Source of the DNA: Clostridia bacterium
GTDB taxonomy: Bacteria > Bacillota > Clostridia > Oscillospirales > CAG-272
DNA length: 52,073 nt
NCBI GenBank assembly: GCA_017540175.1
Contig: JAFYBN010000076.1
Coordinates: 1-52,073, forward strand
Direction: 5' to 3'
Shown one piece after another: positions 2,394 through 48,400 of the stretch (its first letter is position 1; each line of letters begins with the position of its first letter). The position numbers and the translations under genes were made by a program. The notes beneath the pieces are model-generated. The model did no database searches. It saw nothing but the letters and a program-made list of their open reading frames with translations, and was not told the DNA's origin.

Positions 2394-5300
2394 TCAGCGC
2401 TTCTTCGAGACGATCAGGGCAGTGCCCAGAACGGCGACCAGCATGAGAGCGCCGCCTCCGATGAAGGAGCCGCAGCCGGATTTCTTCGCCGGCTCGGTTT
2501 CGGCGGGCGTCTTCGCGGGTTCGTTGTTCGCGGGCTCGGTCTGCGCAGGCTCGGTCTCCGCCGGTTCGGTATCAGCCGGTTCGGTCTCGACCGGTTCGGG
2601 CTCGGTGACCGCCGCCGGCGTCGCGGGGATGGTGAACTTGAACTGGTTTTCGGTGCGGTAGAACGCGTCGCGGGCGGTGGCGTAGTATTCGACTTCGACC
2701 GAATTCCCGTCCTCGGAGAAGTAGAACACGGCAACCAGTCCGTGCGGGCCGCCGCTCGCGTCGAGGCCCTGCGGGTCGATGAGTACCTGGGTCACAGTAT
2801 TGCCGGCGTCGCCCTTCGCCTGACGCATGACGATGTTGCCGCACGGGTCGTGGCCGCTGACCACGAACGCGATGTTCGCGTGCTTCGAGATCAGCTTGTT
2901 CCACATGTCGTCGCCGTTGTTGGTGCCGCCGGACTTGGAAGGCGGCACGACGTCGTTCGCGTCAAGCGTGGTGCCGTCGCGGAAGAAGTAGCAGTGCGTC
3001 GTGATGATCACGCGGTGATCGGGATGCGCGTCGATGATTTCGCCGGCCCAGTTCAGGATATCGTCGTCCGCGCCGTAATCGAGCGTGATCAGCAGGTAGT
3101 CGACGGAGCCCGCCTTGAAGGTGCGCCAAGTGTTCAGGATGGAATCCTGATAGAAGCCCTCGAACTGGCTCTTGTAGGCGTCCGTGGCGACGTTCTTCTC
3201 GTACTTGCCCACGGAGTCGTGATTGCCGCGGACCGCGGAATAGGGGATGACGCCGTCAAGCTTCGAGAACTCCGCCATCGCGGCGCTCCATTCCTTGTCG
3301 GTGTCGCTGTTGGTGATGTCGCCGAGGCCGAAGACGTATTGGATCTTCTTCGAATCCTTGTTTCCGAGGATCCAGTCGTAGAGCACGGGAAGCTTGTCGG
3401 GATAATACTCGGTCAAAATCTGGGTGTCGCCGACGAACGCGAAGGAGTAGGAATAATCGCCGACGGGTTCCTTCTCGGTGAGGAAGATCGGTTCGGTGTA
3501 AAGGGTGTAGTTGTTGCCGGAAAGGTCTGCGATGTTCTCGCCCTCCGCCACGTTGTCGAAATTGTAGAGAGCGGTCAGCTTCTTGCCGACGGCGTTCGCG
3601 CCGTCTTTGTACAGCACGGCGATGTCGTCCGCGGTCAGAACGTCCTGGAACAGGGCGATCTCACGGATCCTGCCCTTGAAGTACTGCCCGTTGCCCGAGC
3701 GGAGGTCGCCGCCCGCGACGACGTTGAGCTCGGACGCGAAGGTGTCGAACTCTCCGAACGCCTGCTCTCCGACGAATTCGCCGTTGACGTAGCAGGTCAC
3801 CGCCTCGTTCTCGGCGACGGTGAAGGCCAGATGCGCCCAGTCGCCGGTACGGATGTCGGCGTTTGTGAACTTCAAATCGACCGTGGTGTTGCTCAGGTCG
3901 GTATGATAGAATCTCGGAACGCCTCCCGTATGGATCTCGATGTTGACGCAGGGGACGCTGCCCTGGTAGTTGCCGAGAATGACGCCGCCGCGTTCAACCT
4001 GGCTCTTTGGCAGATAGACCCATGCGGAATAGGTGTAGGGGGTCTTGCCGAAGCCGTCTTCGTCGGTCATATAGATGGTCGCGGAATCGAAGCTCATGCC
4101 GCCTTCGATTTCGGGCTCGCTGTTCGCGATCGCGTCGGGATCGTAGATGTCCGGTTCGCCGATCAGGTCATATCCGTTGCCGGAGAGGTCGGCGTTCGGA
4201 TTCGAACCCGTCGTGAAGTCGTAGCTTGCGATCAGACCGGTCCCCGTGCCGCTCGCGACCTGTTCCGCAGTCAGAACGTCGGTGTACAGGTTGATCTTGT
4301 AGATCACGCCCTTGAAGAACTGCTCGTTGCCGCCGCGGTAGTCGCCGCCGATCATCTGCGCCTGTTCGGGGATGACCTCATCGGGAAGATCGGCCGCGCA
4401 GTCCATCTTGCCGGCCTCCACTCCGTCGACGTAGCAGGTGATGGTCTTCGCCACGGGATCCTGAACAAGGGTCACGAGGACCGGCACATCGGAGCGGACG
4501 TCGATCCCATCGAAGATGTGGTTATAAACGGTCTTCGCCGGATCCTGATAATAGAGACGGGGATGTCCGCCGGTCTGCAGTTCGAAGCTGATGCAGCAGT
4601 CGCCGCCCGCGTAGTTGCCGACGATCACGCCGGGACGGTTCGCGTATGAGGGATCCAGCTTCAGAAGCGCCTCAAAGGTCCTCAGCGTCTTGTCGAACGG
4701 TTTCGCCATCTGGATCGGCTTGTTGGGGTTGGAAACGAGGCCTTCCATATGGACGGCTTCCACGACCGTGAAGTCGATCGAAGCGATGATGTCGTAGCCG
4801 TCGTTTGCGAGGAGAAGGATCTTGTAGTTGCCGACGCTGAGCGCCGGGGCAAGCTCAATGTCTTTTCCGGGATAATCCTTCGCGTAGCGCCAGTCAATGG
4901 AGCTTTCCACGCCCGGCGTGTCGCTCTCATGATAGATGCCGACCCAGTCGAGGCCTTCTCCTCCCTTAACCGCGGCGATGATGTGCTCGCCTTCCTCGTA
5001 TTTATCCTTGGACAGGAAAAGCGTCTTTCCGCCTCCCGTCGCCGAGAGTTCAAATACGGTGGGCGGCTCGGCGTTGGGGTCTGAGATACTCATGTCGCCC
5101 ACAAGGTCATAACCGCCGCCGGAGAGATCGGCGCCCCGGTTCGAGGCGGCGGTGAAGTCATAGCTCGTGAGGAGTCCGGTGCCGGTCGCGGAAGCGACCT
5201 GATCCGCACTCAGCGCGTCGGAATACATTCTGACCTTATAGATCACGCCCTTGAAGAACTGGGCGTTACCGTCGCGGAAATCGCCGCCGATCATCTGCTC

Positions 5301-7361
5301 CTGCGCGGGGACGATCTCGTCCGGGAATCCTTCGGCGCAGTCCATCTTGCCGACTTCCTTGCCGTCGAGGTAGCAGGTGATGGTCTTCGAGGCGGGATCC
5401 TGAACGAGCGTCAGGCGGACAGGCGCTTCGGAACGCATGTCGACCTCGCTGAAGACGTGGTTGTAGACGGTTCCCGCTTCATCGGAATAGTAGAGGCGCG
5501 GATGACCGCCTGCCGCGAGCTCAAAGCTGATGGCGGCGGGCGAGCCGGCATAGTTGCCGACGATCACGCCGGGACGCTCCCCGTACGCGGGATCCAGCTG
5601 CACGATCACGTCAAAGGTCCTCGGCATCGCTTCCAGTGCCTTTGCGGTCTTGACCGGCTTGCCGGCTTCCGAAATCAGTCCCGTCGCGCCGGCTCCCACG
5701 GGTTCCATGGCGGCGGGCACATCGTCTTCGATCTCGCCTCCCTCGACAAACAGGTCGAAGCCGTTGCCGGAAAGGTCCTTGATGTTTTTGCCCGGCTTTG
5801 CATTCGTGAGATCGTAGTAGGCGACGATCTTTCCGCCGACCGCGTTCACGCCGTCCTTGTAAAGCGCGGCGACTTCGTCGGCCGTCAGGACGTTTTCGAA
5901 CAGGGCGACCTCGCGGATCCTTCCCTTGAAGTACTGCGCGTTGCCGCTGCGGAGGTCGCCGCCGACCGCTACGTTGATCTCGGTGGCGAAGGTTTCAAAT
6001 TCGCCGAACGCCCGCTCTCCGACAGCCTCGCCGTTGACATAGCAGGTCACGACGTCATTGTCGGAAACCGTGAAGGCGACGTGCGTCCAGCCGCCGCGAA
6101 CGTCGGCTTCCGTGAACTTCATGTCCGTAACGGTACCGCTGAAATCGATGTGATAGAATCTGGGAACGCCTCCCGCGTGGACCTCGATGCTGACGCAGGG
6201 AGAGGAATCCGTCTGAAAGTTTCCTATGATGACGCCTCCGCGGTCGGAGTGGGTTTTGGGCAGGTAGACCCACGCGGAGTAGGTATAGGGCGTCTTTGAG
6301 AAGCCGTCCTCAGTGGTCCAGTACTGGGTCAGAGCATCGAAGGTCAGACCGTCCGTGATATCGGCTTCCTTCACCCAGTCGGGGTCGTAGATTTCCATCT
6401 CGCCGACAAGGTCATAGCCGCTGCCGCTGAGATCCTTGTTCTGATCCGCTTCCGCGGTAAAGTCGTAACTCGCGAGGAGCCCCGTTCCGGTTCCGGAAGC
6501 GACCTGCTGTGCAGTCAGCGCGTCGGAATACAGCCTGACCTCGTAGATCAGGCCCTTGAAGAACTGCGCGTTGCCGTCGCGGAAGTCGCCGCCGATCATC
6601 TGCTCCTGCGGCGGGATGATCTCATCCGGGAAGCCCTCGGCGCATTCCATCTTGCCGACTTCCTTGCCATCGAGGTAGCAGGTGATGGTTTTCGTGCCCG
6701 GATCCTGAACGAGCGTCAACAGGACCGGATCCTTGGAGCGCACGTCAACCTCGGTGAAGACGTGGTTGTAAACATTGCCCGCGTCGTCCGAGTAATAGAG
6801 ACGCGGCTGCCCGCCGGCGCTGAGCTCGAAGCTGATGGCGGCGTTCGAGCCGGCGTAGTTCCCGACGATCACGCCGGGGCGGTTCTCATAATCGGGAGCG
6901 AGCTTGAGGAGGACTTCGAAGGTCCTCGGCATTTTATCAAACGCCTTCGCCGTCTTGACAGGCTTGTTCGGGTTGGAAACAAGGGCTGTCATCGGGGCGA
7001 CGTCCACGACCGTGAAGTCCACGGATGTGATGATATCGTAGCCGTCGTTTGCGAGGAGAATGGCCTTGTAGTTTCCTGCGGGAATCAGCACGCCGAACGC
7101 AAACGCCTCGCCGTTGTGATCCTTTACGTAATACCAGTCGATGGAGCCGGCATCGCCGGGCTTGTCGCCGTCATGGTACAGGCCGACCCAGTCGAGACCT
7201 TCTCCGGTCGCGGTCACGACGATGGGCTCGCCCACCTTATACTCGCTCTGTGACAGGGCGATCGTCTTTCCGTCGGCGGAATCCGCCGCGGAGACGGCAC
7301 ACAGACCGGACAGCACGGCGACCGTCAACGCAAGGAGCAGTACGGATATGATCTTTTTCAT
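2394..7361 (-). CDS. Secreted multi-LamG metallophosphoesterase with C-terminal membrane anchor
   Basis: 1655 residues. The ATG at 7361 is chosen because AAGGAAGG lies just upstream and a signal peptide (residues 1-24) follows. Rough order of modules: A1 (28-118, GLDWVGLYHDGD), LamG1 (124-310), LamG2 (335-540), LamG3 (558-740), A2 (769-865, GLDWVGIYHESD), LamG4 (872-1060), LamG5 (1085-1290), calcineurin-type phosphoesterase (1304-1560), Glu/Pro/Thr repeat linker (1580-1627), then GCGS, a ~20-residue hydrophobic helix and KKR at the end. Phosphoesterase motifs seen: FVGDTQ, GLGDITNSD, RGNHD (near 1380), ITTHCYFF and SGHD (near 1501), so the metal-binding set is complete. The family cleaves phosphomono- or diesters; the LamG modules probably dock it on glycan. 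Substrate unknown. It is transcribed divergently from the RpiR regulator through a motif-rich region shared with the solute-binding operon. Confidence 0.9.
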   Translation of the reverse strand: MKKIISVLLLALTVAVLSGLCAVSAADSADGKTIALSQSEYKVGEPIVVTATGEGLDWVGLYHDGDKPGDAGSIDWYYVKDHNGEAFAFGVLIPAGNYKAILLANDGYDIITSVDFTVVDVAPMTALVSNPNKPVKTAKAFDKMPRTFEVLLKLAPDYENRPGVIVGNYAGSNAAISFELSAGGQPRLYYSDDAGNVYNHVFTEVDVRSKDPVLLTLVQDPGTKTITCYLDGKEVGKMECAEGFPDEIIPPQEQMIGGDFRDGNAQFFKGLIYEVRLYSDALTAQQVASGTGTGLLASYDFTAEADQNKDLSGSGYDLVGEMEIYDPDWVKEADITDGLTFDALTQYWTTEDGFSKTPYTYSAWVYLPKTHSDRGGVIIGNFQTDSSPCVSIEVHAGGVPRFYHIDFSGTVTDMKFTEADVRGGWTHVAFTVSDNDVVTCYVNGEAVGERAFGEFETFATEINVAVGGDLRSGNAQYFKGRIREVALFENVLTADEVAALYKDGVNAVGGKIVAYYDLTNAKPGKNIKDLSGNGFDLFVEGGEIEDDVPAAMEPVGAGATGLISEAGKPVKTAKALEAMPRTFDVIVQLDPAYGERPGVIVGNYAGSPAAISFELAAGGHPRLYYSDEAGTVYNHVFSEVDMRSEAPVRLTLVQDPASKTITCYLDGKEVGKMDCAEGFPDEIVPAQEQMIGGDFRDGNAQFFKGVIYKVRMYSDALSADQVASATGTGLLTSYDFTAASNRGADLSGGGYDLVGDMSISDPNAEPPTVFELSATGGGKTLFLSKDKYEEGEHIIAAVKGGEGLDWVGIYHESDTPGVESSIDWRYAKDYPGKDIELAPALSVGNYKILLLANDGYDIIASIDFTVVEAVHMEGLVSNPNKPIQMAKPFDKTLRTFEALLKLDPSYANRPGVIVGNYAGGDCCISFELQTGGHPRLYYQDPAKTVYNHIFDGIDVRSDVPVLVTLVQDPVAKTITCYVDGVEAGKMDCAADLPDEVIPEQAQMIGGDYRGGNEQFFKGVIYKINLYTDVLTAEQVASGTGTGLIASYDFTTGSNPNADLSGNGYDLIGEPDIYDPDAIANSEPEIEGGMSFDSATIYMTDEDGFGKTPYTYSAWVYLPKSQVERGGVILGNYQGSVPCVNIEIHTGGVPRFYHTDLSNTTVDLKFTNADIRTGDWAHLAFTVAENEAVTCYVNGEFVGEQAFGEFDTFASELNVVAGGDLRSGNGQYFKGRIREIALFQDVLTADDIAVLYKDGANAVGKKLTALYNFDNVAEGENIADLSGNNYTLYTEPIFLTEKEPVGDYSYSFAFVGDTQILTEYYPDKLPVLYDWILGNKDSKKIQYVFGLGDITNSDTDKEWSAAMAEFSKLDGVIPYSAVRGNHDSVGKYEKNVATDAYKSQFEGFYQDSILNTWRTFKAGSVDYLLITLDYGADDDILNWAGEIIDAHPDHRVIITTHCYFFRDGTTLDANDVVPPSKSGGTNNGDDMWNKLISKHANIAFVVSGHDPCGNIVMRQAKGDAGNTVTQVLIDPQGLDASGGPHGLVAVFYFSEDGNSVEVEYYATARDAFYRTENQFKFTIPATPAAVTEPEPVETEPADTEPAETEPAQTEPANNEPAKTPAETEPAKKSGCGSFIGGGALMLVAVLGTALIVSKKR

Positions 7362-7736
7362 GACAATCCTTCCTTTCGTAAGCTTTGTGGTTCGGATATG
7401 ATTGGCTTTTGTTCCTGTTCTGCGGTTTGTCCGCGCCGGCGGCGTTTGCTGCCGCGGCGTCGGACGGGGGTCGGGGCGAAAGCGCGGCACACCCGCTGCT
7501 TTCGCGTGTTTGCTTACGAACGTATGCTTGGGTCACGGGCTTCCTGTTCTGCCGAATAAGTCCTCCTTTCGTAGAGAGGCTCGAACCTCCCGCGTCTTCC
7601 GAGGTCCGAGACGGGCCCCGACGGGTTCGGGGTAAAGCCGACGCCGTCTCCGCGGCACCGAGGAAAGCGGTGCTGCGCCGACGGGGGCAAAAAGGCTGCA
7701 TACGGTTCCGTCTTTGCGGCCGGGAATGTGCCGATA

Positions 7737-7750
7737 CGTCAATAATACGG
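7737..7750 (-). promoter_or_regulatory. Conserved early-leader element, copy A
   Basis: CGTCAATAATACGG (plus strand), ~15 bases downstream of the leftward -10. The same sequence with one change (CGTCAATAATATGG) lies at 12094-12107 in the solute-binding operon leader, and CTCTTTC stands between element and promoter in both. It could be an operator or an RNA-level element. Confidence 0.55.
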
Positions 7751-7764
7751 GGTTCTCTTTCTTG

Positions 7765-7793
7765 ATTATAGATCAAATTGAGCAAAAAGTCAA
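7765..7793 (-). promoter_or_regulatory. Promoter of the LamG-metallophosphoesterase gene
   Basis: Minus-strand TTGACT (7788-7793), 17-base spacer, TATAAT (7765-7770). It is preceded by AAGCGC and then the shared 41-base element. Confidence 0.85.
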
Positions 7794-7806
7794 GCACAGC
7801 GCTTCT

Positions 7807-7847
7807 TTTGTGAAAAAATAAAGCAACGCTCATTTCCCTGCATCAAA
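7807..7847. promoter_or_regulatory. 41-base shared upstream element, copy A
   Basis: Starts TTTGTGAAAAAATAAAGC and ends CTGCATCAAA. It matches 12172-12212 at 40 of 41 positions. Its left end stands 13 bases from the -35 hexamer of the leftward promoter, as in copy B. Flanking DNA is much less conserved, which points to a protein-binding site. The RpiR protein encoded 140 bases away is the obvious candidate ligand (inference). Confidence 0.7.
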
Positions 7848-7883
7848 TCCGCGAAAAGGCTGCGGGAACGCCGTTTCCCGCTT

Positions 7884-7898
7884 GATTTTCGAAAAAAA
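7884..7898. promoter_or_regulatory. Second candidate operator, RpiR promoter side
   Basis: GATTTTCGAAAAAAA begins 29 bases before the TTGACA of the rightward promoter. GATTTGTGAAAAAAA sits at exactly the same distance before the MFS promoter, and a near copy forms the left end of the 41-base element. Confidence 0.5.
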
Positions 7899-7912
7899 CC
7901 GAACGCACCGCA

Positions 7913-7941
7913 TTGACAACGGCGCGGCGTTTCGATATAAT
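7913..7941 (+). promoter_or_regulatory. Promoter of the RpiR regulator gene
   Basis: TTGACA (7913-7918), 17-base spacer, TATAAT (7936-7941). It lies inside an upstream extension of the reading frame, which fixes the true start at the later ATG (7984). Confidence 0.85.
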
Positions 7942-7983
7942 AAGAACGCACAACCGAAATCCTATCGAGGCAGGAAAGAGAGT

Positions 7984-8838
7984 ATGCGGAACAACATCGG
8001 ATTCGTCAACGCCCTGTTCAAAATCCGGGACGAAATGGACGGCATGACCTATACGCAGAAGCAGATCGCGTCCGGCATCCTCGCGGATCCCTCCGCGGTC
8101 ATCCGTTCGTCCCTGCGGCGCACGGCGGACAGGCTCGGGGTGTCCGAGGGAAGCATCATCAAATTCGCGAATATTCTCGGCTTCAGCGGATACAGCGCGC
8201 TCCGTCTCAACATCGCGCAGTGTCTGAGTCCGCACGAGATCGATTCCCCGCGGGAATCGAGCGGGGAGCACTCCGTTTTGACCGAGACGATGGAGAAAAT
8301 CATCCGGTCGATGGAGGTGACGTGCGATCTCGGAAACGACGCGGCGATCGAGACGGCGTCCCGTCTTCTGCGGGAAGCGAAGCGCGTGGAGGTTTACGGC
8401 GTCATCTCCTCGGCCGTCGTCGCGGTGGACAGCGCGTTCCGGCTCATGAAGCTCGGTTTTTCCGTGAAGGCGGAGACGGACCCGATCACCTGTCCGCTTT
8501 CCGCGACCCTTCTCGGTCCCGGGGACGCGGTCCTCGTGCTTTCCGCCACCGGCAGGACGCACGACGTCGTCCGCGCGGTACAGATCGCGAAGGACCGGGG
8601 AGCGTCCGTCATCAGCGTGACGGGAAACGCCGCGAGTCCGATCGCGAAGCTCTCCGACGCGACGCTTCTGACCGGGGATTCCGGCGCGAGCGTCACGAAC
8701 TTCTCTCACAACATCCGCTTCGTACAGATCTTCCTCGTGGAAGCGCTCTGCCGGCACATCGCCCTGTCCGACAAAGAGCGGCAGACGGAGCGTCAGGCGG
8801 AGATCGACCGCATCTGGGCGGAGTATTACAACACCTGA
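7984..8838 (+). CDS. RpiR/MurR-family transcriptional regulator with SIS domain
   Basis: 284 residues from the ATG at 7984 (AGGAAAG upstream). The N-terminal RpiR winged helix (about residues 1-80) shows MTYTQKQIASGILADP and the recognition region TADRLGVSEGSIIKFANILG; the SIS sugar-isomerase fold (about 115-245) shows VYGVISSAVVAVDSAFRL, VLSATGRTHDVVRAV and VISVTGNAASPIAKLSD. The length is normal. RpiR proteins sense phosphosugars through the SIS domain and repress or activate catabolic genes. Here it is divergent from a secreted phosphoesterase and close to solute-binding and OPA transporter genes that share its promoter motifs, so it probably controls them (inference). Family call is secure. 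Confidence 0.93.
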   Translation: MRNNIGFVNALFKIRDEMDGMTYTQKQIASGILADPSAVIRSSLRRTADRLGVSEGSIIKFANILGFSGYSALRLNIAQCLSPHEIDSPRESSGEHSVLTETMEKIIRSMEVTCDLGNDAAIETASRLLREAKRVEVYGVISSAVVAVDSAFRLMKLGFSVKAETDPITCPLSATLLGPGDAVLVLSATGRTHDVVRAVQIAKDRGASVISVTGNAASPIAKLSDATLLTGDSGASVTNFSHNIRFVQIFLVEALCRHIALSDKERQTERQAEIDRIWAEYYNT

Positions 8839-8848
8839 ATCCCCGAGA

Positions 8849-8894
8849 AGCGGGGCTGCTTAACTCCCAGGCAGCGGAGCAGCCCCGCTTTTTT
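8849..8894 (+). terminator. Intrinsic terminator of the RpiR gene
   Basis: AGCGGGGCTGCT pairs with AGCAGCCCCGCT (12 bases), followed by six T on the plus strand. The converging solute-binding operon ends 12 bases further on and may use the same hairpin. Confidence 0.85.
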
Positions 8895-8905
8895 CATGTC
8901 CGGGA

Positions 8906-10405
8906 TCAGTTGTCTTCCCGGACGGCTTCGAGCAGGTTTGAGAGCATCCGCTCGTAGATCTTTTCACTTCTCTTATAGGTGGAAACAAAGTCCTTGCTCT
9001 TGTCGATGAGGATCATGGAGCGAAGGGAGAGCATCATGTTTCCGAGGCTGTAATTGTAGAAGTACCCGAAGTCCGTCGTCATCGAATCGTGGATCAGGTC
9101 GATGATCTGCGAAGCGGCATCCGACGAATCGCGGCGGTATTTCGTTTTCAGGATCACGTCGTAATAATCCGGCATCACTTCGTAATAGTAACAGTACCCC
9201 ATCTTTTCGAGCACCGCCGACGAGGATGCGATGTGCCCGCTGATCGCCGGGATGCAGAGGATATTCGCGTCGTCGTGCGTGAGCGAGCCGTAGCTTTCGA
9301 CGGTATCGTCGAGCTTCGGCAGGGGCAGGATCGTGAAGTTCGTCTCCACGTTCCGATACAGATCCAGACGGGAGAAGTTCTCGTTGAGGAACAGCACCCG
9401 GCTGCCCTCGAGCATGTCGACGGGTTCGAAAATCTGATATCCGAAGGAGCCGTTGTTGTTCCAAAGCAGGTCGTAGAGAAGTTCCACGAACCGGATCGTA
9501 TCCGGCGTGTTGAAGTCGAGATACGGGACGCCTTCCTCATCGCGGGAGCAGCCCCGCACGCCGCAGTCGATCATGAAATGGTCGACGGTGATGGTCGCAG
9601 AGGTGGCGTAGCCGTACGTATCGCGTTCGTCGCGTTCGCCGTTTCCGCCCACGTCTACATACACGCCCCCAACGATTTCGGACAGCCTGTCAAACGTCCA
9701 GTCCCCGTTCAAAACGAGCTCGTAAATATCCGAGACGTCCCGTCCGATATCGGTGAGCAGATCCGTGTTGAGGATCATCATGGACGAGCGGCGGAACACG
9801 TCCGGGGACGCGTCGCCCGCGAGGAAATAGGTGTGTCCGCTGTCCGCCATGGCCTCGCCGATGTAGTTCCGGTACCACCACGGCTTTTCATAATCGAAAT
9901 AATACCCTTCCCTCCCGTTCAGGTTGGCGAGCATGTGCTGGAGCGTGAGCGGCGCGACCTTCCACTGCGTCCCGTAGACGATCTCGTAGATATCGTCCCC
10001 CGCGCGGTAAGCGTTCGTCACCTTATCCGCTTCGATGCCGTCGTTTTCAATGTGTCGAAACACGCAGTCGAGGTCCTCCATGACCTTTTGGTTGGAGTTG
10101 AAGACCGCGTCGTTCAGCAGTTCGCCCGAAAGCTCTTCGACATCGACGGTGAAGGTCTGCACGTCGCGAAAATGCAGAAAGCGCACGGATTCCCCGCTCA
10201 TTTTCAGATCCCCCGGCACTGAGCAGACCAGTTTTTCTTCCGTCTCCGGAGCGTCGTCCGCGGGCTCCGTGCCCACTCCCTGCGTGGGCTCCGTCTCTTC
10301 GGGATCGGCGTTCGCGGACGACTCGCCGCACCCCGCAAGCGGGAGCATGAGCATCAGGAGCGCGAGAAGGAAAGCACTCAGTCTCTTTGGTTTTGTAAGT
10401 GTCAT
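8906..10405 (-). CDS. Extracellular solute-binding lipoprotein (ABC type), paralogue 1
   Basis: 499 residues. The ATG at 10405 has a strong GGAGGGAGG just upstream and is followed by a lipoprotein signal, LMLPLAGC (Cys26). An acidic/Thr-rich linker leads to a family-1-like substrate-binding fold with motifs such as LLNDAVFNSNQKVMEDLDC, FLAGDASPDVFRRSSMM and LTHDDANILCIPA. A loop with an EF-hand/dockerin-like pattern (VGGNGERDERDTYGY) may bind calcium. It is second in a two-gene operon, 51 bases after its paralogue, and is very similar to it over its whole length. No ABC permease or ATPase gene is near. Ligand unknown, probably a glycan piece; the terminal residues are Glu-Asp-Asn. Confidence 0.88.
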   Translation of the reverse strand: MTLTKPKRLSAFLLALLMLMLPLAGCGESSANADPEETEPTQGVGTEPADDAPETEEKLVCSVPGDLKMSGESVRFLHFRDVQTFTVDVEELSGELLNDAVFNSNQKVMEDLDCVFRHIENDGIEADKVTNAYRAGDDIYEIVYGTQWKVAPLTLQHMLANLNGREGYYFDYEKPWWYRNYIGEAMADSGHTYFLAGDASPDVFRRSSMMILNTDLLTDIGRDVSDIYELVLNGDWTFDRLSEIVGGVYVDVGGNGERDERDTYGYATSATITVDHFMIDCGVRGCSRDEEGVPYLDFNTPDTIRFVELLYDLLWNNNGSFGYQIFEPVDMLEGSRVLFLNENFSRLDLYRNVETNFTILPLPKLDDTVESYGSLTHDDANILCIPAISGHIASSSAVLEKMGYCYYYEVMPDYYDVILKTKYRRDSSDAASQIIDLIHDSMTTDFGYFYNYSLGNMMLSLRSMILIDKSKDFVSTYKRSEKIYERMLSNLLEAVREDN

Positions 10406-10456
10406 ACGTACCTCCCTCCGTTTTTCTACTCCGTTTTTTCTCCGTTTCCGCACGGC

Positions 10457-11962
10457 TCACTCATCCTCCTGCATGGTTTCGAGCAGGTTTTCGAGCATCT
10501 TCTTGTAGATTTTTTCGTTCCTCTTGTACAGGGACGTGAAGGCGGTGCTCTTTTGCGTGCAGATCAGATCGCGCAGGGAGAGCATCATATTGCCCATGCC
10601 GTAGTTGTAAAAATACCCGAAATCCGTCGTCAGCGAATCGTGGATCAGATCCATGACCTGCGAGGCGGCGTCGGAGGAATCGCGGCGGTATTTCGTTTTG
10701 AGGATGACGTTGTAATAATCGGGCATCACGTCGTAATAGTAATAATAACCGAGCTTTTCGAGCACCGCCGAGGACGTCTCTATCCGGCTGCTGATCGCGG
10801 GGATGCAGATGATGTTCGCGTCGTCGTGCGTAAGCGAGCCGTAGTGCTCGATGAAATCGTTGAGCTTGGGCAGGGGCAGGACCGTGAAATTGGTCTCCGT
10901 ATTGCGGAGCTGATCGAGCCTCGAGAACTGTTCGCTGAGGAAGAGCACCCGGTTGTTTTCGAGCATTTCGAAGGTCGGGATCGCCTCGACGTACCCGTAC
11001 GAGCCGGTGTTGTACCAGAGGAGATTGACGAAGAATTCCACGAACTCGACCGTGTTCGGGGTGTTGAAGTCGACGTACGGCACGCCGTCCTCGTCGCGCG
11101 AGCAGCCCTTCACGCCCGAGTCGATCATAAAATGATCCACGTCGATGCCCGTATGGGAGGCGAAGCCGTACGTATCCTTGACGTCGCGCACACCGTCGCC
11201 GTTGCTGTCCACATAAACGCCGCGGACGATCTCCGCCCATCGGTCAAGCGTCCACCTTCCGTCGAGGACGAGCTCGTAAATATCGCCCACTTCCCGTCCG
11301 ATATCGGTCAGCAGATCGGTGTTGAGGATCAGCATGGACGAACGGCGGAACACGTCGGGCGACGCGTCTCCGGCGAGAAAATAGGTGTGCTCGTTGTCCG
11401 CCATCGCCTCCCGGATGTAGTGCCCGTACCACCACGGCTTGTCATAATCGATGTAAGTCCCCTCGCGCCGGTTGAGATTGGCGAAGATGTGCTGGACGAC
11501 GACCGGCGCTACGGTCCACTGCGTTCCGTAAACGATCTCGTAAACGTCGTCCCCCGCCTGGCGCGCGTTCGTCAGCGTCGCGGGGTTTTTGCCGCCGTTT
11601 TCGATATGCACGAAAACGCAGTCGAGGTCTTCCATGACTCTCTGGTTGCTGTTGACGACCGCATCGTTGAGCAGCTCGCCGGTAAGTTCTTCAATGTTGA
11701 TGGTAAACGTTTCCGTGGCAAAGAAATGTAGAAAGCGCACGGATTCCCCGTTCAGCTTCAGACTTTCCGGGACGCTGCATTCGAGCAGTTTCTCCCCTTC
11801 CTCATCTTCGCCCTCTTCCTCCGGGGACGTCTCGGGGGATCCGGTGTCCGCCGCCGCGTCCGCCGGGTTCTCATCAGCTTTCTCGCCGCACCCCGCGGAG
11901 AAGAAACAGGACACGGCTGTCAGGATGCAAAGGATGAGCGCGATCAATCTTTTTGTTTTCAT
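10457..11962 (-). CDS. Extracellular solute-binding lipoprotein (ABC type), paralogue 2
   Basis: 501 residues. The ATG at 11962 follows GAAAGGAAA; the lipobox is FFSAGC (Cys25). It aligns end to end with the downstream paralogue: LLNDAVVNSNQRVMEDLDC, FLAGDASPDVFRRSSML, SNGDGVRDVKDTYGF and MPDYYNVILKTKYRRDSSD. It is the promoter-proximal gene of the pair and is transcribed from 12130, divergently from an OPA-type MFS transporter. The family normally hands sugars to an ABC importer, yet none is encoded here, so it may use a permease elsewhere or serve as a surface binding protein. The duplication looks fairly recent because long stretches are identical in both. Confidence 0.88.
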   Translation of the reverse strand: MKTKRLIALILCILTAVSCFFSAGCGEKADENPADAAADTGSPETSPEEEGEDEEGEKLLECSVPESLKLNGESVRFLHFFATETFTINIEELTGELLNDAVVNSNQRVMEDLDCVFVHIENGGKNPATLTNARQAGDDVYEIVYGTQWTVAPVVVQHIFANLNRREGTYIDYDKPWWYGHYIREAMADNEHTYFLAGDASPDVFRRSSMLILNTDLLTDIGREVGDIYELVLDGRWTLDRWAEIVRGVYVDSNGDGVRDVKDTYGFASHTGIDVDHFMIDSGVKGCSRDEDGVPYVDFNTPNTVEFVEFFVNLLWYNTGSYGYVEAIPTFEMLENNRVLFLSEQFSRLDQLRNTETNFTVLPLPKLNDFIEHYGSLTHDDANIICIPAISSRIETSSAVLEKLGYYYYYDVMPDYYNVILKTKYRRDSSDAASQVMDLIHDSLTTDFGYFYNYGMGNMMLSLRDLICTQKSTAFTSLYKRNEKIYKKMLENLLETMQEDE

Positions 11963-12093
11963 GGAGTTTTCCTTTCCCCTGTCTCTGATGCAGGATATTC
12001 CGCCGGTTTGACGCATGCGCGTTTCCGCCCCGTTCGTCCGAGGACTTCCGGGGTCTTTTTCGGATCGCGCTTTCGTTTCGGAATGGGCTATCC

Positions 12094-12107
12094 CGTCAAT
12101 AATATGG
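12094..12107 (-). promoter_or_regulatory. Conserved early-leader element, copy B
   Basis: CGTCAATAATATGG, 23 bases downstream of the leftward -10. It matches 7737-7750 with one substitution. Confidence 0.55.
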
Positions 12108-12129
12108 ATTTTCCTCTTTCACATTTAAC

Positions 12130-12158
12130 ATTATATATTGATTTGACCAAATAGTCAA
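12130..12158 (-). promoter_or_regulatory. Promoter of the solute-binding protein operon
   Basis: Minus-strand TTGACT (12153-12158), 17-base spacer, TATAAT (12130-12135), with AAGCG just upstream. Confidence 0.85.
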
Positions 12159-12171
12159 GTTTGACGCTTGA

Positions 12172-12212
12172 TTTGTGAAAAAATAAAGCAACGCTCATTT
12201 TCCTGCATCAAA
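12172..12212. promoter_or_regulatory. 41-base shared upstream element, copy B
   Basis: Matches 7807-7847 at 40 of 41 bases; the one change is T for C in the CATTTTCCTG part. Position relative to the leftward -35 is the same as in copy A. In this copy GAAAA and TTTTC form a loose inverted repeat across ~16 bases. Confidence 0.7.
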
Positions 12213-12260
12213 ACGCCGACTCGGCCGGGAGCGCCCCGCCGACCGCGGAGCTTTCGCGCC

Positions 12261-12276
12261 GATTTGTGAAAAAAAC
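12261..12276. promoter_or_regulatory. Second candidate operator, MFS promoter side
   Basis: GATTTGTGAAAAAAAC begins 29 bases before the TTGACA of the MFS promoter. It directly repeats the left end of the 41-base element (12170-12183). Confidence 0.55.
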
Positions 12277-12289
12277 TGCGCGAAACACA

Positions 12290-12318
12290 TTGACAAGGAG
12301 GTCGTGCTGAACTATAAT
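12290..12318 (+). promoter_or_regulatory. Promoter of the MFS transporter gene
   Basis: TTGACA (12290-12295), 17-base spacer, TATAAT (12313-12318). Confidence 0.85.
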
Positions 12319-12392
12319 GAGCGGAGAAATACGGAGCCGCGGAGCGCACAACGCGTGAGATCGCGCCCGGCGGCGGATAGGAAGCGTCTCAT

Positions 12393-13613
12393 ATGGAATC
12401 ATCAGCCCGACGTTCGCGCATGTTCGTTTTTCTTTGCTGTCTCGTCTATTTCACGAGCTATCTCACGCGGATCAATTACGGGGCGGTCCTTGTGGAGATC
12501 ATCCGGGACCTCGATATTACGAAAGAGGCCGGGAGCATCGCCGTCACGGGGAGCTTTATCACCTACGGCGTCGGACAGCTCATCAGCGGACTGCTCGGGG
12601 ACAAGATGTCTCCGCGTCTCCTGATCGCCCTCGGGCTGTGCTCGACGGCGGCGGTCAACCTCTCGATGGTTTTTCTGCCGGATATCCGCATCATGACCGT
12701 GGTCTGGTGCTTCAACGGCTTCTTCCAGGCGATGCTCTGGCCTCCGCTTGTAAAAATGATGGCGGAAAACCTCAAGGGGACGGCGTACACCCTGAGCGCC
12801 GTTTTGGTCTCCGCTTCGGCGTCCGTTTCCACGATCTTCGTCTATCTCATCTCTCCGCTCCTCATCACGCGGCTGAGTTGGCGGGCGGTGTTCGTTCTCG
12901 CGGGCTCCGTCGGCTTTGCCGCCGCCCTGTTCTGGTACCACGGCACGGCGGGCATGTCCGAGGGAGAGGCCGGGGGTGCGGGCGGCGTGCAGAAAAAGCA
13001 CGTGAGTATCGGCGACATATCCCACTCCGGCATCGCCCTCGTCATGATCGTCATCATCCTGCAGGGGATCCTGCGCGACGGGATCACGACGTGGATGCCG
13101 ACGTACATCAAGGAGGTCTTCGACCTCGGCTCCTCCGTCTCGATCCTGACGACGGTGGTGCTCCCGATCTTCAGCATCGCGAGCGTGACCCTCGCCTCCC
13201 GGTTTCTCATCCGACTGCGCGACGAGATGCTGACGGCGACGATTCTGTTCGGGATCGCGCTCGGCGCTTCCCTTCTGATGCCGGTGTTCTTCTCCGGGAG
13301 CATGATCGTATGCGCGCTCCTGATGGCGCTCATCACGGGGTGCATGCACGGCGTGAACCTCATGCTGATCAGCAGGCTCCCCATCCATTTCAAGAGATTC
13401 GGGCATATCGCGATGATCTCCGGCCTGCTCAACGCCTGCACCTACATCGGCAGCGCGCTCTCGACCTACGGCTTCGCGGTCTATTCCGAGCGGTACGGCT
13501 GGGGGTTCATCATCTGGCTCTGGGTCGCCATCTGCGTGCTCGGGACCGGGCTCGCCGCGCTCAACCTCCGCCGCTGGAAGCGGTTCACCGCGGGGGACGG
13601 CGAGAACGGCTGA
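12393..13613 (+). CDS. Major facilitator transporter, organophosphate:phosphate antiporter (OPA)-like
   Basis: 406 residues, about twelve membrane segments, so a normal MFS length. The start is the ATG at 12393 with AGGAAG upstream. N-terminal features recall GlpT/UhpT relatives: TSYLTRINYG in helix 1, the GQLISGLLGDKMSPR loop between helices 2 and 3, and NGFFQAMLWPPLVKMMAEN in helix 4 (OPA members have a similar FQ..GWPP stretch). Such carriers exchange phosphorylated sugars, glycerol-3-phosphate or phosphoglycerate for phosphate. The gene is divergent from two solute-binding lipoproteins, and its promoter region mirrors that of the RpiR/phosphoesterase pair. Import of a phosphorylated compound is an inference; a generic MFS sugar-acid carrier is the alternative. 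No terminator is evident behind it. Confidence 0.82.
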   Translation: MESSARRSRMFVFLCCLVYFTSYLTRINYGAVLVEIIRDLDITKEAGSIAVTGSFITYGVGQLISGLLGDKMSPRLLIALGLCSTAAVNLSMVFLPDIRIMTVVWCFNGFFQAMLWPPLVKMMAENLKGTAYTLSAVLVSASASVSTIFVYLISPLLITRLSWRAVFVLAGSVGFAAALFWYHGTAGMSEGEAGGAGGVQKKHVSIGDISHSGIALVMIVIILQGILRDGITTWMPTYIKEVFDLGSSVSILTTVVLPIFSIASVTLASRFLIRLRDEMLTATILFGIALGASLLMPVFFSGSMIVCALLMALITGCMHGVNLMLISRLPIHFKRFGHIAMISGLLNACTYIGSALSTYGFAVYSERYGWGFIIWLWVAICVLGTGLAALNLRRWKRFTAGDGENG

Positions 13614-13758: not shown

Positions 13759-14847
13759 ATGAGAAAAATCAAAAGACTTATCAGTTTTCTTCTGTGCCTG
13801 ACGCTCACGGCGGCTCTCGCCTTGTCCGCCTCAGCGGCGCAGTACACGGATGAAGACGAGATCGGCGAGCTCTACGCTCCCGCCGTCTCCGAAATGTCCC
13901 GGCTCGGCGTGCTGAACGGATTTCCGGACGGCTCCTTCCAGCCGAAGGAAAGGCTGACCCGCGCGCAGGGCGCGAAAATCATCGTTTATCTCATTCTCGG
14001 CGCCAACGCGAAGACCCTTCCCTGCGAGGACGCTCCGTTCACGGACGTCCCGGCGGATCACTGGGCGTTGTCCTACATCGACTGGTGCGTGAAGCGCGAA
14101 ATCATCATCGGCTATGGGGACGGCACTTTCGGTCCCGACCATCCTTTGACCGGGACCCAGTTCTCGAAAATGCTCCTCTGCGCCATGGGACTTGCGCGCG
14201 AGGGCAATTACATCGGTCTCGGGGACGCCTGGATCGACGCCGTTTTTGAAGACGGAGAGGCCGTCGGTCTCTTCGCGGGCGACCCGAAGACGGCGGAAAA
14301 CGAGCCGATCGAACGCCGTCAGGCGGCTCTGCTCGCTTACAACTGCCTGCTCGCCGCGGAAGCGGCTTCCGCGCAGCCCGAACAGCCCCCGAAGACGACC
14401 GATCCGGTCAATCCTCAGGGAACAGGACAGCAGGGACAGCAGCAGGGACAGCAGACCCATATTACGCAGCCGGAGCAGCCGGAAAGCCCGCCGTTCGTTC
14501 CTGACAAGCCCATCTCTCAGGGCGGCTCGAGCGATCCGCGCGACCCGCACAATCCTTGGAAGCCCGACGACACCGAAACGCCGGAGGTCCCCGTGACTCC
14601 GGAGAATCCGGAGAATCCGCAGAATCCCGAGAATCCGCAGAACCCGGAAAATCCGCAGAACCCCGAGAATCCGCAGAACCCGGAGAACCCGCAGAATCCC
14701 GAGAATCCGCAGAATCCCGAGAATCCGCAGAACCCGGAAAATCCGACGAACCCGGAAAATCCGACGAATCCCGGCGGGTCGGGCCAGACCGAAAAACCCG
14801 GTCCCTCCCACGGCGGCGACATCGTTCTGCCCGAGATCCCGATTTGA
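13759..14847 (+). CDS. S-layer-homology (SLH) surface protein with Asn-Pro-Glu repeat tail
   Basis: 362 residues from the ATG at 13759, with a signal peptide of ~28 residues ending ALSASA. Three SLH-type modules follow: one with LGVLNGFPDGSFQPKERLTR, one with FTDVPADHWALSYIDW and GYGDGTFGPDHPLTGTQF, and a more degenerate third (residues ~155-200). SLH triplets bind pyruvylated cell-wall polymer, so this is held non-covalently at the wall. After a Gln/Pro linker comes a stretch of about ten NPENPQ/NPENPT hexapeptides (14598-14772) and a short Gly/Pro tail. There is no catalytic domain; it may be a spacer or wall-decorating protein. Repeat number probably varies between strains (inference). Confidence 0.9.
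   Translation: MRKIKRLISFLLCLTLTAALALSASAAQYTDEDEIGELYAPAVSEMSRLGVLNGFPDGSFQPKERLTRAQGAKIIVYLILGANAKTLPCEDAPFTDVPADHWALSYIDWCVKREIIIGYGDGTFGPDHPLTGTQFSKMLLCAMGLAREGNYIGLGDAWIDAVFEDGEAVGLFAGDPKTAENEPIERRQAALLAYNCLLAAEAASAQPEQPPKTTDPVNPQGTGQQGQQQGQQTHITQPEQPESPPFVPDKPISQGGSSDPRDPHNPWKPDDTETPEVPVTPENPENPQNPENPQNPENPQNPENPQNPENPQNPENPQNPENPQNPENPTNPENPTNPGGSGQTEKPGPSHGGDIVLPEIPI
14598..14772 (+). repeat. 18-base coding repeats (NPENPQ)
   Basis: About ten in-frame units of the form AAYCCSGARAAYCCGCAG, differing mostly at third codon positions; the last two read NPENPT. Confidence 0.9.
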
Positions 14848-45426: not shown

Positions 45427-48400
45427 ATGCACAAACAGCGGCATATCTGTCTCGTTCTGATCTGCTTCCTTGCCCTGCTCCTGTTCGCGGTCATTCCCGC
45501 GTACGCGGACGCGCCGTGGAGCGGCAACGGAACAGCAGGCAATCCGTACCGCATCGGCAGTGAAGCGGACCTGCGCGCTCTGGCGGATGAGGTCAACAGC
45601 GGAAACTCATATGCGAAAACCTATTTCATGCTCACCGAAGACTTTTCCGCGGGGAGCGGCGGCTGGACGCCGATCGGTTCATCGAAGAGCCTTCCTTTCG
45701 ACGGCGTCTTTGACGGCGAAGATCACACGATCACGCTGGATTCCGAGAACGACGCGTCTTATCAAGGGCTCTTCGGCGTTCTGACGGGCACGGTGAGGAA
45801 TCTGACGGTAAACGTCCATGTGACCGGCGGCGATTATGTCGGCGGCATCGCGGCGTACTGCTGCGGCACGATCGCGGATTGCTCCGTCCAAGGCTCCGTG
45901 ACGGGCAGCAGCTACGTCGGCGGCATCGTCGGTTATCTCGGCCCCGGCAGCTCGATCACCGAATGCGAATCCGGAGCCGCCGTCACCGGCGAGGGCACCG
46001 CGATCGGCGGCGTGGTCGGCGCCGCGAACAACATTCCGGAGCATTCGAGCCGCTTTGATGCTCAGGCCGCCGCGGTCGGCAGCGGGAGCGGAACGCTCCC
46101 GGTCAGCAGCGGCTCGGGCGCGTCGAGCGGCACGAACGGAACGATCTCCGACTGTGACTTTACCAAGGACGGCGTGCTTGTCGGCACGGCTCCCGCAAGC
46201 TCCGACGATCCGGAGTACAACGAGACGACCGGCGTGATGACGATCCCCTACTATGACAACGCCTACGGCGGCATCGTCGGCTGGAGCAACGGATTTGAGG
46301 TCACAGGCTGCAGAAACCTCGGTTCGGTGACGGGCGGCGATTTCACCGCCGGTATTGTCGGCGACAGCACCAACGGCGGCACGATCAAAAACTCCTATAA
46401 CGGGGGCACGGTCACGGGCAGCGGCAGACTCACGGGCGGCATCGCGGGCCGGATCAACCAAGGGCTGATCGAGAACTGCGCCAACCATGAAACCGTGAAC
46501 GGCGGCGATTTCACCGGCGGCATCGTCGGCTTCGCGGACAAGGAGAGCCGCGTCAACGGCTCCTACACTTCGTCGACGGGCGAGGTGACCGGCTCCGAAT
46601 ACGTCGGCGGCGTCATGGGCATCGCGAACTGCGCCGTAAACGGTCTCAGGAATATGGGCAAGGTCAGCGGTCTGAGATACACGGGCGGCATCGTCGGCTA
46701 CACGACGAAGGACGTCGTGGGCTGTGAGACTACCTCCGGGGCGTCTGTATCCGCCGTCAGCTCGGGCGGCAGCGCAGCCTACGGGTTGGGCGGCATCGTC
46801 GGTTACGCTTCCGCCGGCATTTCGAACTGCAAAAATCTGGGCGCCGTAAAGGGCGCAGCTTATACGGGCGGCGTCGCGGGCTATGTGAAACGGGACGCCG
46901 CGGGCTGCTCGAATACCGGCAGCGTCGAAGGCTCCGATCGCGTCGGCGGCGTCGCCGGCTATGTCGCCGGAACGGCCGAAAACTGCACGAACGACGGAGC
47001 GGTCCGCGGAACGAACTACGTGGGCGGCGTCGTCGGACTGACGGAAGGCAGCCTGAACAAGTGCAGCAACGCGGGCGAGGTGAACGGCTCTCTCGCCTTC
47101 GTCGGCGGCGTCGCCGGCATGGCGGGCGGGGCGGTCTCCTGCACGAACACGGGCAAGGTCTTTTGCCCGAGCGTCTCCGGCGGCGGTATCGCGGGCGCGG
47201 CGGACGGCGCGGTCTCAAGCTGCATCAACACAGGCTCCGTCACCGCCGCGGGCGGTCTGGCGGGCGGCATCGCGGGCGCGGCGAGCGAAAACGCTCCGAT
47301 CGACGGCTGTCTGAACATCGGCGCGGTATCGGGCGGCTCTCTGACCGGCGGCATCGCCGGGATAGCAAACCGGGAAATCACGGACTGTACGAACAAAGGA
47401 ACGATCGTCGGCTCCGACGGCTTTACGGGCGGTATCGCGGGCGCGAACGCCGCCCGTGTCACGGACTGCTCGAACAGCGGCGCGGTATCGGGCGTCTGGC
47501 GCACCGGCGGCATCGTCGGAAGCTGCTATGAGGACGCCTCCGTATCGGGCTGCGACAACACGGGCACGGTCACCGGCACGGGAGAGAAGACCGGCGGCAT
47601 CGCAGGCGCGACCGGCGGAAATACGGACGACGAAGGGGACGACGGCTCCGCCCTGATCAGCGGGTGCGTCAACAGCGGCAAGGTCGCGGGCAAGGACCTG
47701 ACGGGCGGCGTCGTCGGTTATCTGACCGGCGAATCGTACGGCTGCTCCAATTCCGGAGAGGTCACGGGCGCGAGGTTTACGGGCGGCATCGCGGGGCACG
47801 CGAAGAACGGGCTCTCGTCCATGGTCAACGAAGGCGCGGTCCGGGGCGGGAACTTCTCCGGCGGCATTGCCGGAAACTCCGAGGGCCCCGTTGAGGGCTG
47901 CGTCAACAAGAACGCGGTCACCGGCACGGGCGAGAATACCGGCGGCATCGCGGGCGCCTCGACCGGCGACGTCTCGAACTGCGTCAACTCCGGCGCCGTC
48001 TCGGGCGTGAAGTACGTCGGCGGCATCACGGGCATCAACGCGAATTGCAGCGTTACGGACTGCGTGAACAGAGCGTCCGTATCCGGCACCTCCTCCTACG
48101 TCGGTGGCATAACCGGCTTCAGCAACGGCGGAACGCTCTCCGCCTGCGTCAATGAGAACAAAAACACGACGGTGAGCTCCTCGGCGGAAGGCGAGACGTA
48201 CGTCGGCGGCATCGTCGGCTACAACAACGGCCCGATCCTCTCCTGCCGCAACGAAGCGTCCGTCAGCGGCGCGTCAGCGTCGGCAGGCGTCGCAGGCTAC
48301 TGTCTGCGCGGCGCCGTCACATCGTGCACCAACAACGGCAGCGTAACGGGCAAGAGTTATACGGGCGGCATCATAGGCACCGCTTACATGGACAACAATC

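What the first reader, a model, noticed from the sequence alone, without database searches (positions are those of the whole stretch)
7807..12212. Identical 41-base element in two divergent promoter regions
Positions 7807-7847 and 12172-12212 match at 40 of 41 bases, while flanking DNA is far less alike. One lies between the LamG-phosphoesterase and RpiR genes, the other between the solute-binding operon and an OPA-like transporter. Conservation of a non-coding block far beyond its surroundings suggests a regulator site tying four transcription units into one regulon. RpiR-family operators are normally near their own gene, as here.
Basis: partly seen in the sequence, partly recalled or inferred. 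Interest (0 to 1): 0.8.

Follow-up and report, generated by a model that had tools for sequence, protein, structure and literature searches.

The report
Duplicated control region with shared operator
A bacterium carries two copies of one two-way gene switch, and a 41-base stretch kept almost identical in both probably lets one regulator protein control four neighbouring gene groups at once; this is a well-preserved but fairly ordinary kind of local control.

Summary
7807-7847 and 12172-12212 match at 40 of 41 bases; with up to three mismatches neither the 27-nt core nor either half occurs elsewhere in the 3.9 Mb assembly. The block is the core of a longer homology: the whole divergent control region is duplicated (67% over 245 columns). 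Each copy has a leftward TTGACT-17-TATAAT and a rightward TTGACA-17-TATAAT promoter; the block lies 13 nt upstream of the leftward -35 in both. A related second module sits upstream of the rightward -35.

In the two nearest RpiR orthologs one control region separates an RpiR-OPA operon from divergent genes: LamG, hydrolase and binding-protein genes in G203, binding-protein and hydrolase genes in G052. In the window similar genes are split over two copies. This favours one regulon. RpiR as binder is plausible, not shown: half-sites like those of relatives' RpiR promoters bound the block's first 28 bp (97 of 5039 permuted matrices do as well), but one helical turn too far apart, and the block was not found in relatives' loci. 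No sign of a mobile repeat or known RNA. New member of a known kind.

The parts
7807..7847 (.). 41-nt block, copy 1; 13 nt upstream of the leftward -35 (about -50 to -90 of the LamG-phosphoesterase promoter, start site inferred)
12172..12212 (.). 41-nt block, copy 2; 13 nt upstream of the leftward -35 of the solute-binding-protein genes
7723..7944 (.). duplicated divergent control region, copy 1 (IG1)
   Evidence: 165 of 245 columns identical, E 1e-27
12080..12321 (.). duplicated divergent control region, copy 2 (IG2)
7765..7793 (-). leftward promoter TTGACT-17-TATAAT
12130..12158 (-). leftward promoter TTGACT-17-TATAAT
7913..7941 (+). rightward promoter TTGACA-17-TATAAT (RpiR)
12290..12318 (+). 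rightward promoter TTGACA-17-TATAAT (OPA-like transporter)
7800..7829 (.). distal module, copy 1 (start of the block and the bases before it), related to the proximal module
7879..7906 (.). proximal module, copy 1, CGCTTGATTTTCGAAAAAA..AACGC, next to the rightward -35
   Evidence: 0 of 2000 single-base shuffles reach the IG2-distal/IG1-proximal score
12159..12194 (.). distal module, copy 2
12252..12274 (.). proximal module, copy 2 (holds GATTTGTGAAAAAA exactly, as the distal one does)
7807..7834 (.). putative stretched operator TTTGTGA-N14-GCTCATT
12172..12199 (.). putative stretched operator TTTGTGA-N14-GCTCATT
12263..12291 (.). putative stretched operator TTTGTGA-N15-ACACATT reaching the rightward -35
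2394..7361 (-). LamG repeats + calcineurin-like phosphoesterase, with a signal-peptide-like start (MKKIISVL)
7984..8838 (+). RpiR-family regulator (HTH_6 + SIS)
8906..10405 (-). solute-binding-like lipoprotein 2 (68% identical to protein 1); no Pfam match of its own
10457..11962 (-). solute-binding-like lipoprotein 1; named from weak similarity to proteins with a sub-threshold SBP_bac_1 match
12393..13613 (+). MFS transporter; OPA-type models match best but below curated cut-offs

Best explanation
The two regions are paralogous copies of one divergent control region that in relatives separates a secreted LamG/hydrolase/binding-protein gene group (G203) or binding-protein and hydrolase genes (G052) from an rpiR-OPA operon. 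In this lineage rpiR and the transporter gene are apart: a binding-protein pair with its own copy of the control region lies between them. The 41-bp block is the upstream operator of the leftward promoters, kept nearly identical because one regulator, most likely the adjacent RpiR protein, must read both copies. RpiR would bind the half-sites TTTGTGA and GCTCATT, plus the related module beside each rightward -35. A sugar-phosphate ligand of its SIS domain would switch the bound form. Because the block lies upstream of -35 and not over the promoter, it could act by activation, or by looping to the proximal module. Shown here: duplication, excess conservation, promoter anatomy, gene linkage in two relatives, module repetition. 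Inferred: that a protein binds, that it is RpiR, the ligand, the sign of control, and the direction of the rearrangement.
For: Duplication and excess conservation. Two copies only in the genome. Same 13-nt spacing to a consensus leftward -35 in both. RpiR-OPA adjacency with divergent LamG, hydrolase and SBP-like genes in G203 and divergent SBP-like and hydrolase genes in G052. G203 and G052 share their own footprint (CTCAATAAAAT-N18-CTCAAT), by eye at the same place relative to the divergent -35, found once in each genome and not in the window's. Relatives' RpiR promoters carry TTGWG-N5-CTCAA sites: with leave-one-out scoring the top two lie 29-33 bp apart in 19 of 30 upstream regions, and lag 31 gives the best mean pair score of the lags 14-59. 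In the 52-kb window, left-right half-site pairs of 7 bits or more at offset 21 or 22 occur only at 7807, its homologue 12172, and 12263. 97 of 5039 column-permuted half-site matrices reach the block's score; 75 of 5039 place as many of the top 118 half-sites in the two regions (12, against a mean of 3.9). At the exact position 12172, 4 of 2000 permuted 17-mer matrices rank as high.
Against: The 41-mer was not found in 84 loci of other genomes (511,480 bases, overlaps included; best 26 of 41). No intact canonical palindrome: the half-sites are 11 bp further apart than in relatives, a spacing recognised after the fact. 182 of 2000 permuted 17-mer matrices rank as high somewhere in 12164-12200. 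660 of 5039 permuted half-site matrices put as many of the top six half-sites into the block. Other 41-nt windows of the same regions score as well (19 of 163, 70 of 187). Flexible full-site scores in IG1 and IG2 do not exceed shuffles (24 and 82 of 300). Two further offset 21/22 pairs occur in 144,545 bases of other own-genome loci, chosen in part for similar motifs, so about 0.7 would be expected in 52 kb. IG1 has 4 half-sites of 7 bits, no more than the best of 43 AT-matched windows. Among the six closest RpiR relatives (L026-L031) only G203 shows the 29-33 bp spacing; G052 gives 16 and the others no convincing site. The A-tract may be a general promoter element.
Confidence: 0.55

Rival explanations
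1. The block is a true shared operator, but for another regulator, and RpiR acts elsewhere in these regions, for example at 7761-7794 over the leftward -10 and -35.
For: The best canonical RpiR-like palindromes in IG1 are ATTGAGCAAAAAGTCAAG (7777) and CTTGATTATAGATCAAA (7761), outside the block. The block has much conserved sequence that the half-site model does not explain (GCAAC, TTYCCTGCATCAAA).
Against: No third copy of either half of the block in the genome, which a global factor would be expected to have. The 7761 site is not kept in IG2.
Confidence: 0.2
2. The block is mainly an UP element / A-tract that raises the strength of the leftward promoters, conserved through promoter strength, with no specific regulator.
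For: GATTTTTGAAAAAA or a close variant precedes consensus-like promoters elsewhere in this genome, two of them in front of tRNA genes (tRNA-Trp in L071, tRNA-Glu in L092).
Against: Conservation runs through 41 bp including the mixed stretch GCAACGCTCATTTYCCTGC, whose 24-nt surroundings have no other copy. The A-tract starts 19 nt from the -35 (7813 against 7793), not directly next to it.
Confidence: 0.15
3. The identity reflects recent local gene conversion or a young duplication, not selection.
For: Paralogous regions 4.4 kb apart in direct orientation; the neighbouring binding-protein genes are themselves a tandem pair, 68% identical in protein.
Against: Outside the block identity has dropped to 114 of 180 columns, while promoter hexamers and the block are kept; a conversion tract ending exactly so is possible but special.
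Confidence: 0.05
4. Dispersed mobile repeat, phage element or structured RNA.
For: None found.
Against: Two copies only, no Rfam match in the window at gathering threshold, no exact 28-mer match in the viral collection.
Confidence: 0.02

Closest known systems
NanR of Streptococcus pneumoniae (RpiR family; PMC12713135, preprint, passages read)
   Same: RpiR/SIS regulator; near-palindromic sites shared by several promoters of one sugar-uptake cluster; proposed activation through a further half-site beside the UP element; a tetramer could bridge sites
   Different: Its site is TCTGAAACTACTTTCAAA-like, 18 bp; here the half-sites are TTTGTGA and GCTCATT, further apart; target genes differ; nothing here was tested biochemically
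NanR of Clostridium perfringens (PMC4509764, passages read)
   Same: RpiR family; short A-rich conserved elements shared by several promoters of one regulon, NanR proposed as one possible binder
   Different: GAAAAATATTTTC elements lie in the regions of transcription starts; the block here lies upstream of -35
RpiR-OPA divergent control regions of G203 and G052
   Same: Regulator 45-47% and transporter 54-61% identical, same divergent layout, a conserved footprint next to the divergent -35
   Different: One control region, not two; different footprint sequence; rpiR and OPA genes adjacent

Membership tests
RpiR/MurR-family transcription regulator (the protein) | N-terminal HTH_6 and C-terminal SIS domain | tested here: met
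   HTH_6 E 2.7e-16, SIS E 7.6e-16, both above gathering score
RpiR-family operator (the block) | Match to the TTGWG-N5-CTCAA-type site of related RpiR promoters | tested here: inconclusive
   Half-sites present, spacing 11 bp too long; controls mixed: 97 and 660 of 5039, 4 and 182 of 2000, 24 and 82 of 300
RpiR-family operator (the block) | Bound by the purified protein | not testable with these tools
   needs EMSA or DNase I footprint
RpiR-family operator (the block) | Same sequence conserved beside orthologous genes in other species | tested here: not met
   best 26 of 41 in 84 loci of other genomes, 25 or less in G203 and G052; only layout and position are alike
Duplicated divergent promoter region | Homology along the whole region with both promoters in both copies | tested here: met
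Dispersed mobile repeat | Many copies at unrelated loci | tested here: not met
Known structured RNA | Rfam match | tested here: not met
   0 matches in the window at gathering threshold
OPA-family antiporter (the transporter) | Curated cut-off of an OPA-type model | tested here: not met
   PgtP, UhpC, GlpT and other models match, all far below cut-off; MFS_1 is met. It resembles OPA transporters; substrate unknown

The most novel reading that the evidence does not exclude
RpiR regulators of this bacterial family read paired operators about three helical turns apart (29-33 bp in 19 of 30 upstream regions), and in this lineage the operator evolved into a stretched form whose two half-sites are one additional turn apart, repeated in three or four modules that let one tetramer link two divergent control regions 4.4 kb apart.
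Probability: 0.2. Interest if true: 0.5.

Novelty: new member of a known kind. Interest (0 to 1): 0.35.

Why it matters
It gives a concrete, testable operator for an RpiR regulator that may control uptake of a phosphorylated compound, and suggests how a one-switch gene group can be split yet stay under one regulator by copying the switch. If the paired-site spacing seen in relatives' promoters holds up, it fits the tetramers reported for RpiR proteins (PMC12713135, passages) and would help annotate such regulons.

Tried and rejected
Mobile repeat, phage origin and RNA were tested and found no support. A genome-wide regulon marked by GATTTGTGAAAAAA was tested: 66 matches with up to 2 mismatches against 15 for the pattern read backwards. 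The only exact matches are the two in IG2; some weaker ones lie next to consensus-like promoters (30 of the 66 looked at), two before tRNA genes, so I do not call it a regulon. One weaker site (C96:22124, L072/L126) lies upstream of a consensus promoter in front of a secreted-looking protein; by eye its partner half-site is missing, so it is only noted.

Searches for closer orthologs (each count includes the window's own genome): RpiR in 2 of 25 genus genomes (E 1e-20), 23 of 395 family genomes (E 1e-30), 3 of 394 order genomes (E 1e-42), 1 of 1 genome in the genus of G052. Family and order are even draws from larger groups, so closer orthologs may exist unsearched. The 41-mer was scanned only in the loci held, not in those whole genomes. 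The 251-base query of the OPA control region matched 2 of 196 family genomes: the own genome and one 30-nt stretch in G078, not followed. The genome-contig scan gave one Spiroplasma relative, not used.

The first matrix had four wrong picks that overlap the -10 (L032, L041, L042, L043) and was replaced. The sites were picked by eye from the same upstream regions; leave-one-out scoring was used, which read the last 200 nt of each region (300 for L036, 102 for L031). Caveat: one site of each pair in many relatives overlaps the -10 in the form TGTGATATAAT, which may be an extended -10 (recalled, not tested) and not an operator; the pairs of L035, L038, L036 (its first and third hits) and G203 do not. 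L050 counts among the 19 although its scores are poor.
Full report
Observation. The 41-nt block is present at 7807-7847 and 12172-12212 with one difference. In the 3.9 Mb assembly the 27-nt core, the left 20 nt and the right 24 nt, each with up to three mismatches, match only at these two places. There is no exact 28-mer match in the viral collection and no Rfam match in the window.

Anatomy. The two intergenic regions align along 245 columns at 67%. Each has a leftward promoter TTGACT-17-TATAAT (7793 to 7765; 12158 to 12130) and a rightward promoter TTGACA-17-TATAAT (7913-7941; 12290-12318). The block begins 13 nt from the leftward -35 in both, so it lies at about -50 to -90 of the inferred leftward starts and further upstream of the rightward ones. 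Inside the block 40 of 41 columns agree, outside 114 of 180; column shuffles reach a 40-of-41 stretch in 2 of 20,000. The significant alignment runs from a little beyond the leftward -10 to the rightward -10; genes and the rest of the leaders lie outside it.

Second module. The start of the block and the bases before it (CGCTTGATTTGTGAAAAAA...AACGC) recur beside the rightward -35, at 7879-7906 and 12252-12274. Single-base shuffles of the distal segment reach the alignment score in 12, 6, 0 and 0 of 2000 for the comparisons IG1-IG1, IG1-IG2, IG2-IG1 and IG2-IG2. Similar motifs also precede other strong promoters in the genome, two of them of tRNA genes, so a general promoter (UP element) contribution is possible.

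Gene context. Window: LamG-phosphoesterase (leftward), RpiR with HTH_6 and SIS (rightward), two solute-binding-like lipoproteins (leftward), and an MFS transporter nearest to OPA-type models but below their cut-offs (rightward). The lipoproteins have no Pfam match of their own; the name rests on 24-27% identity to relatives, two of which have sub-threshold SBP_bac_1 matches (E 0.005-0.006). In G203 (same genus; RpiR 46%, transporter 61%) a single region separates LamG, two metallo-beta-lactamase-fold proteins and an SBP-like protein on the left from RpiR-OPA on the right; another SBP-like gene lies beyond OPA. In G052 (another genus; 47%, 54%; contig of 5,720 bases) it separates an SBP-like gene followed by a truncated relative of the G203 hydrolase from RpiR-OPA, with SBP-like pieces beyond OPA. 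Of 12 RpiR loci fetched, 4 have an OPA-like gene directly after RpiR (two of them weak, 25-27%) and 2 have the SBP relatives. Of 10 OPA loci fetched (116 genomes had a match), 4 have an SBP relative in the stretch and 1 a weak RpiR match. The linkage is strong in the two closest orthologs and looser beyond them.

What could bind. In 30 upstream regions of RpiR relatives (window excluded) I saw a TTGWG-N5-CTCAA palindrome. With leave-one-out matrices the two best sites lie 29-33 bp apart in 19 of 30 regions, 31 bp in 10; lag 31 has the best mean pair score of lags 14-59. Against: of the six relatives nearest to the window's RpiR (L026-L031) only G203 shows this spacing, and part of the signal may be an extended -10. 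In G203 right half-sites lie 29 bp apart at both its leftward and its rightward promoter (L054 7787/7816 and 7927/7956). A half-site matrix from relatives places TTTGTGA (7807) first and GCTCATT (7828) third in IG1; in IG2 ACACATT (12285), TTTGTGA (12263, 12172) and GCTCATT (12193) are second, fourth, fifth and sixth. Left-right pairs of 7 bits or more at offset 21 or 22 occur in the 52 kb only at 7807, 12172 and 12263, the first two being homologous. In relatives the offset is 10, so here it is one helical turn longer.

Controls. For the reading: 97 of 5039 column-permuted matrices reach the block's score; 75 of 5039 reach the enrichment in both regions (12 of the top 118 half-sites, mean 3.9); 4 of 2000 permuted 17-mer matrices rank 12172 as high. 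Against: 182 of 2000 do so somewhere in 12164-12200; 660 of 5039 put as many of the top six half-sites in the block; 19 of 163 and 70 of 187 other 41-nt windows of the regions score as well; full-site scores are reached by 24 and 82 of 300 shuffles; two more offset 21/22 pairs appear in 144,545 bases of other own-genome loci; IG1 has 4 half-sites and IG2 8, against at most 4 in 43 AT-matched windows. The 41-mer is not in 84 loci of other genomes (best 26 of 41). I rate RpiR as binder as likely but unproven.

Mechanism. Most likely the block is an upstream operator kept identical so that one regulator reads both copies. The upstream position allows activation, as proposed for S. pneumoniae NanR (PMC12713135, passages), or repression by looping to the proximal module. 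Ligand and sign are inference only. C. perfringens NanR offers another case of shared A-rich elements in an RpiR-type regulon (PMC4509764, passages). One full-text search for RpiR family with organophosphate, transporter and regulon returned no paper; two searches gave listings only, from which these two papers were chosen. I make no wider claim about the literature.

Verdict. Real, local and functional-looking. The reading as a shared operator tying four units is partly supported. New member of a known kind.

Noticed in passing
L026, L032-L046, L048, L137, L138 upstream of RpiR genes: Many RpiR promoters of this bacterial family and order carry two TTGWG-N5-CTCAA-like palindromes about 31 bp apart, often one over the -10 and one before the start codon.
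   Followed up: partly
L054 7788-7822 (+) and L055 3496-3530 (-): CTCAATAAAAT-N18-CTCAAT is conserved between two genera near the divergent -35, and occurs once in each genome.
   Followed up: partly
7738-7751 and 12095-12108: CGTCAATAATAYGG is kept just downstream of the leftward -10 in both copies; by eye a similar GCCAATAATAT lies at the -10 of G203's divergent promoter.
   Followed up: no
L126 (G000:C96), near C96:22124: GATTTGTGAAAAACAAAGCAA upstream of a consensus promoter of a secreted-looking protein; possible third partial site.
   Followed up: partly
L054 14968-16125: A PI-PLC-X domain protein lies near the G203 RpiR-OPA cluster, which would fit a phosphorylated substrate.
   Followed up: no
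13759-14847: S-layer-homology protein with a tandem NPENPQ-type repeat.
   Followed up: no
45427-52071: Very long open frame of degenerate DNA repeats (GGCGGCATCGTCGG type) that runs off the end of the contig.
   Followed up: no
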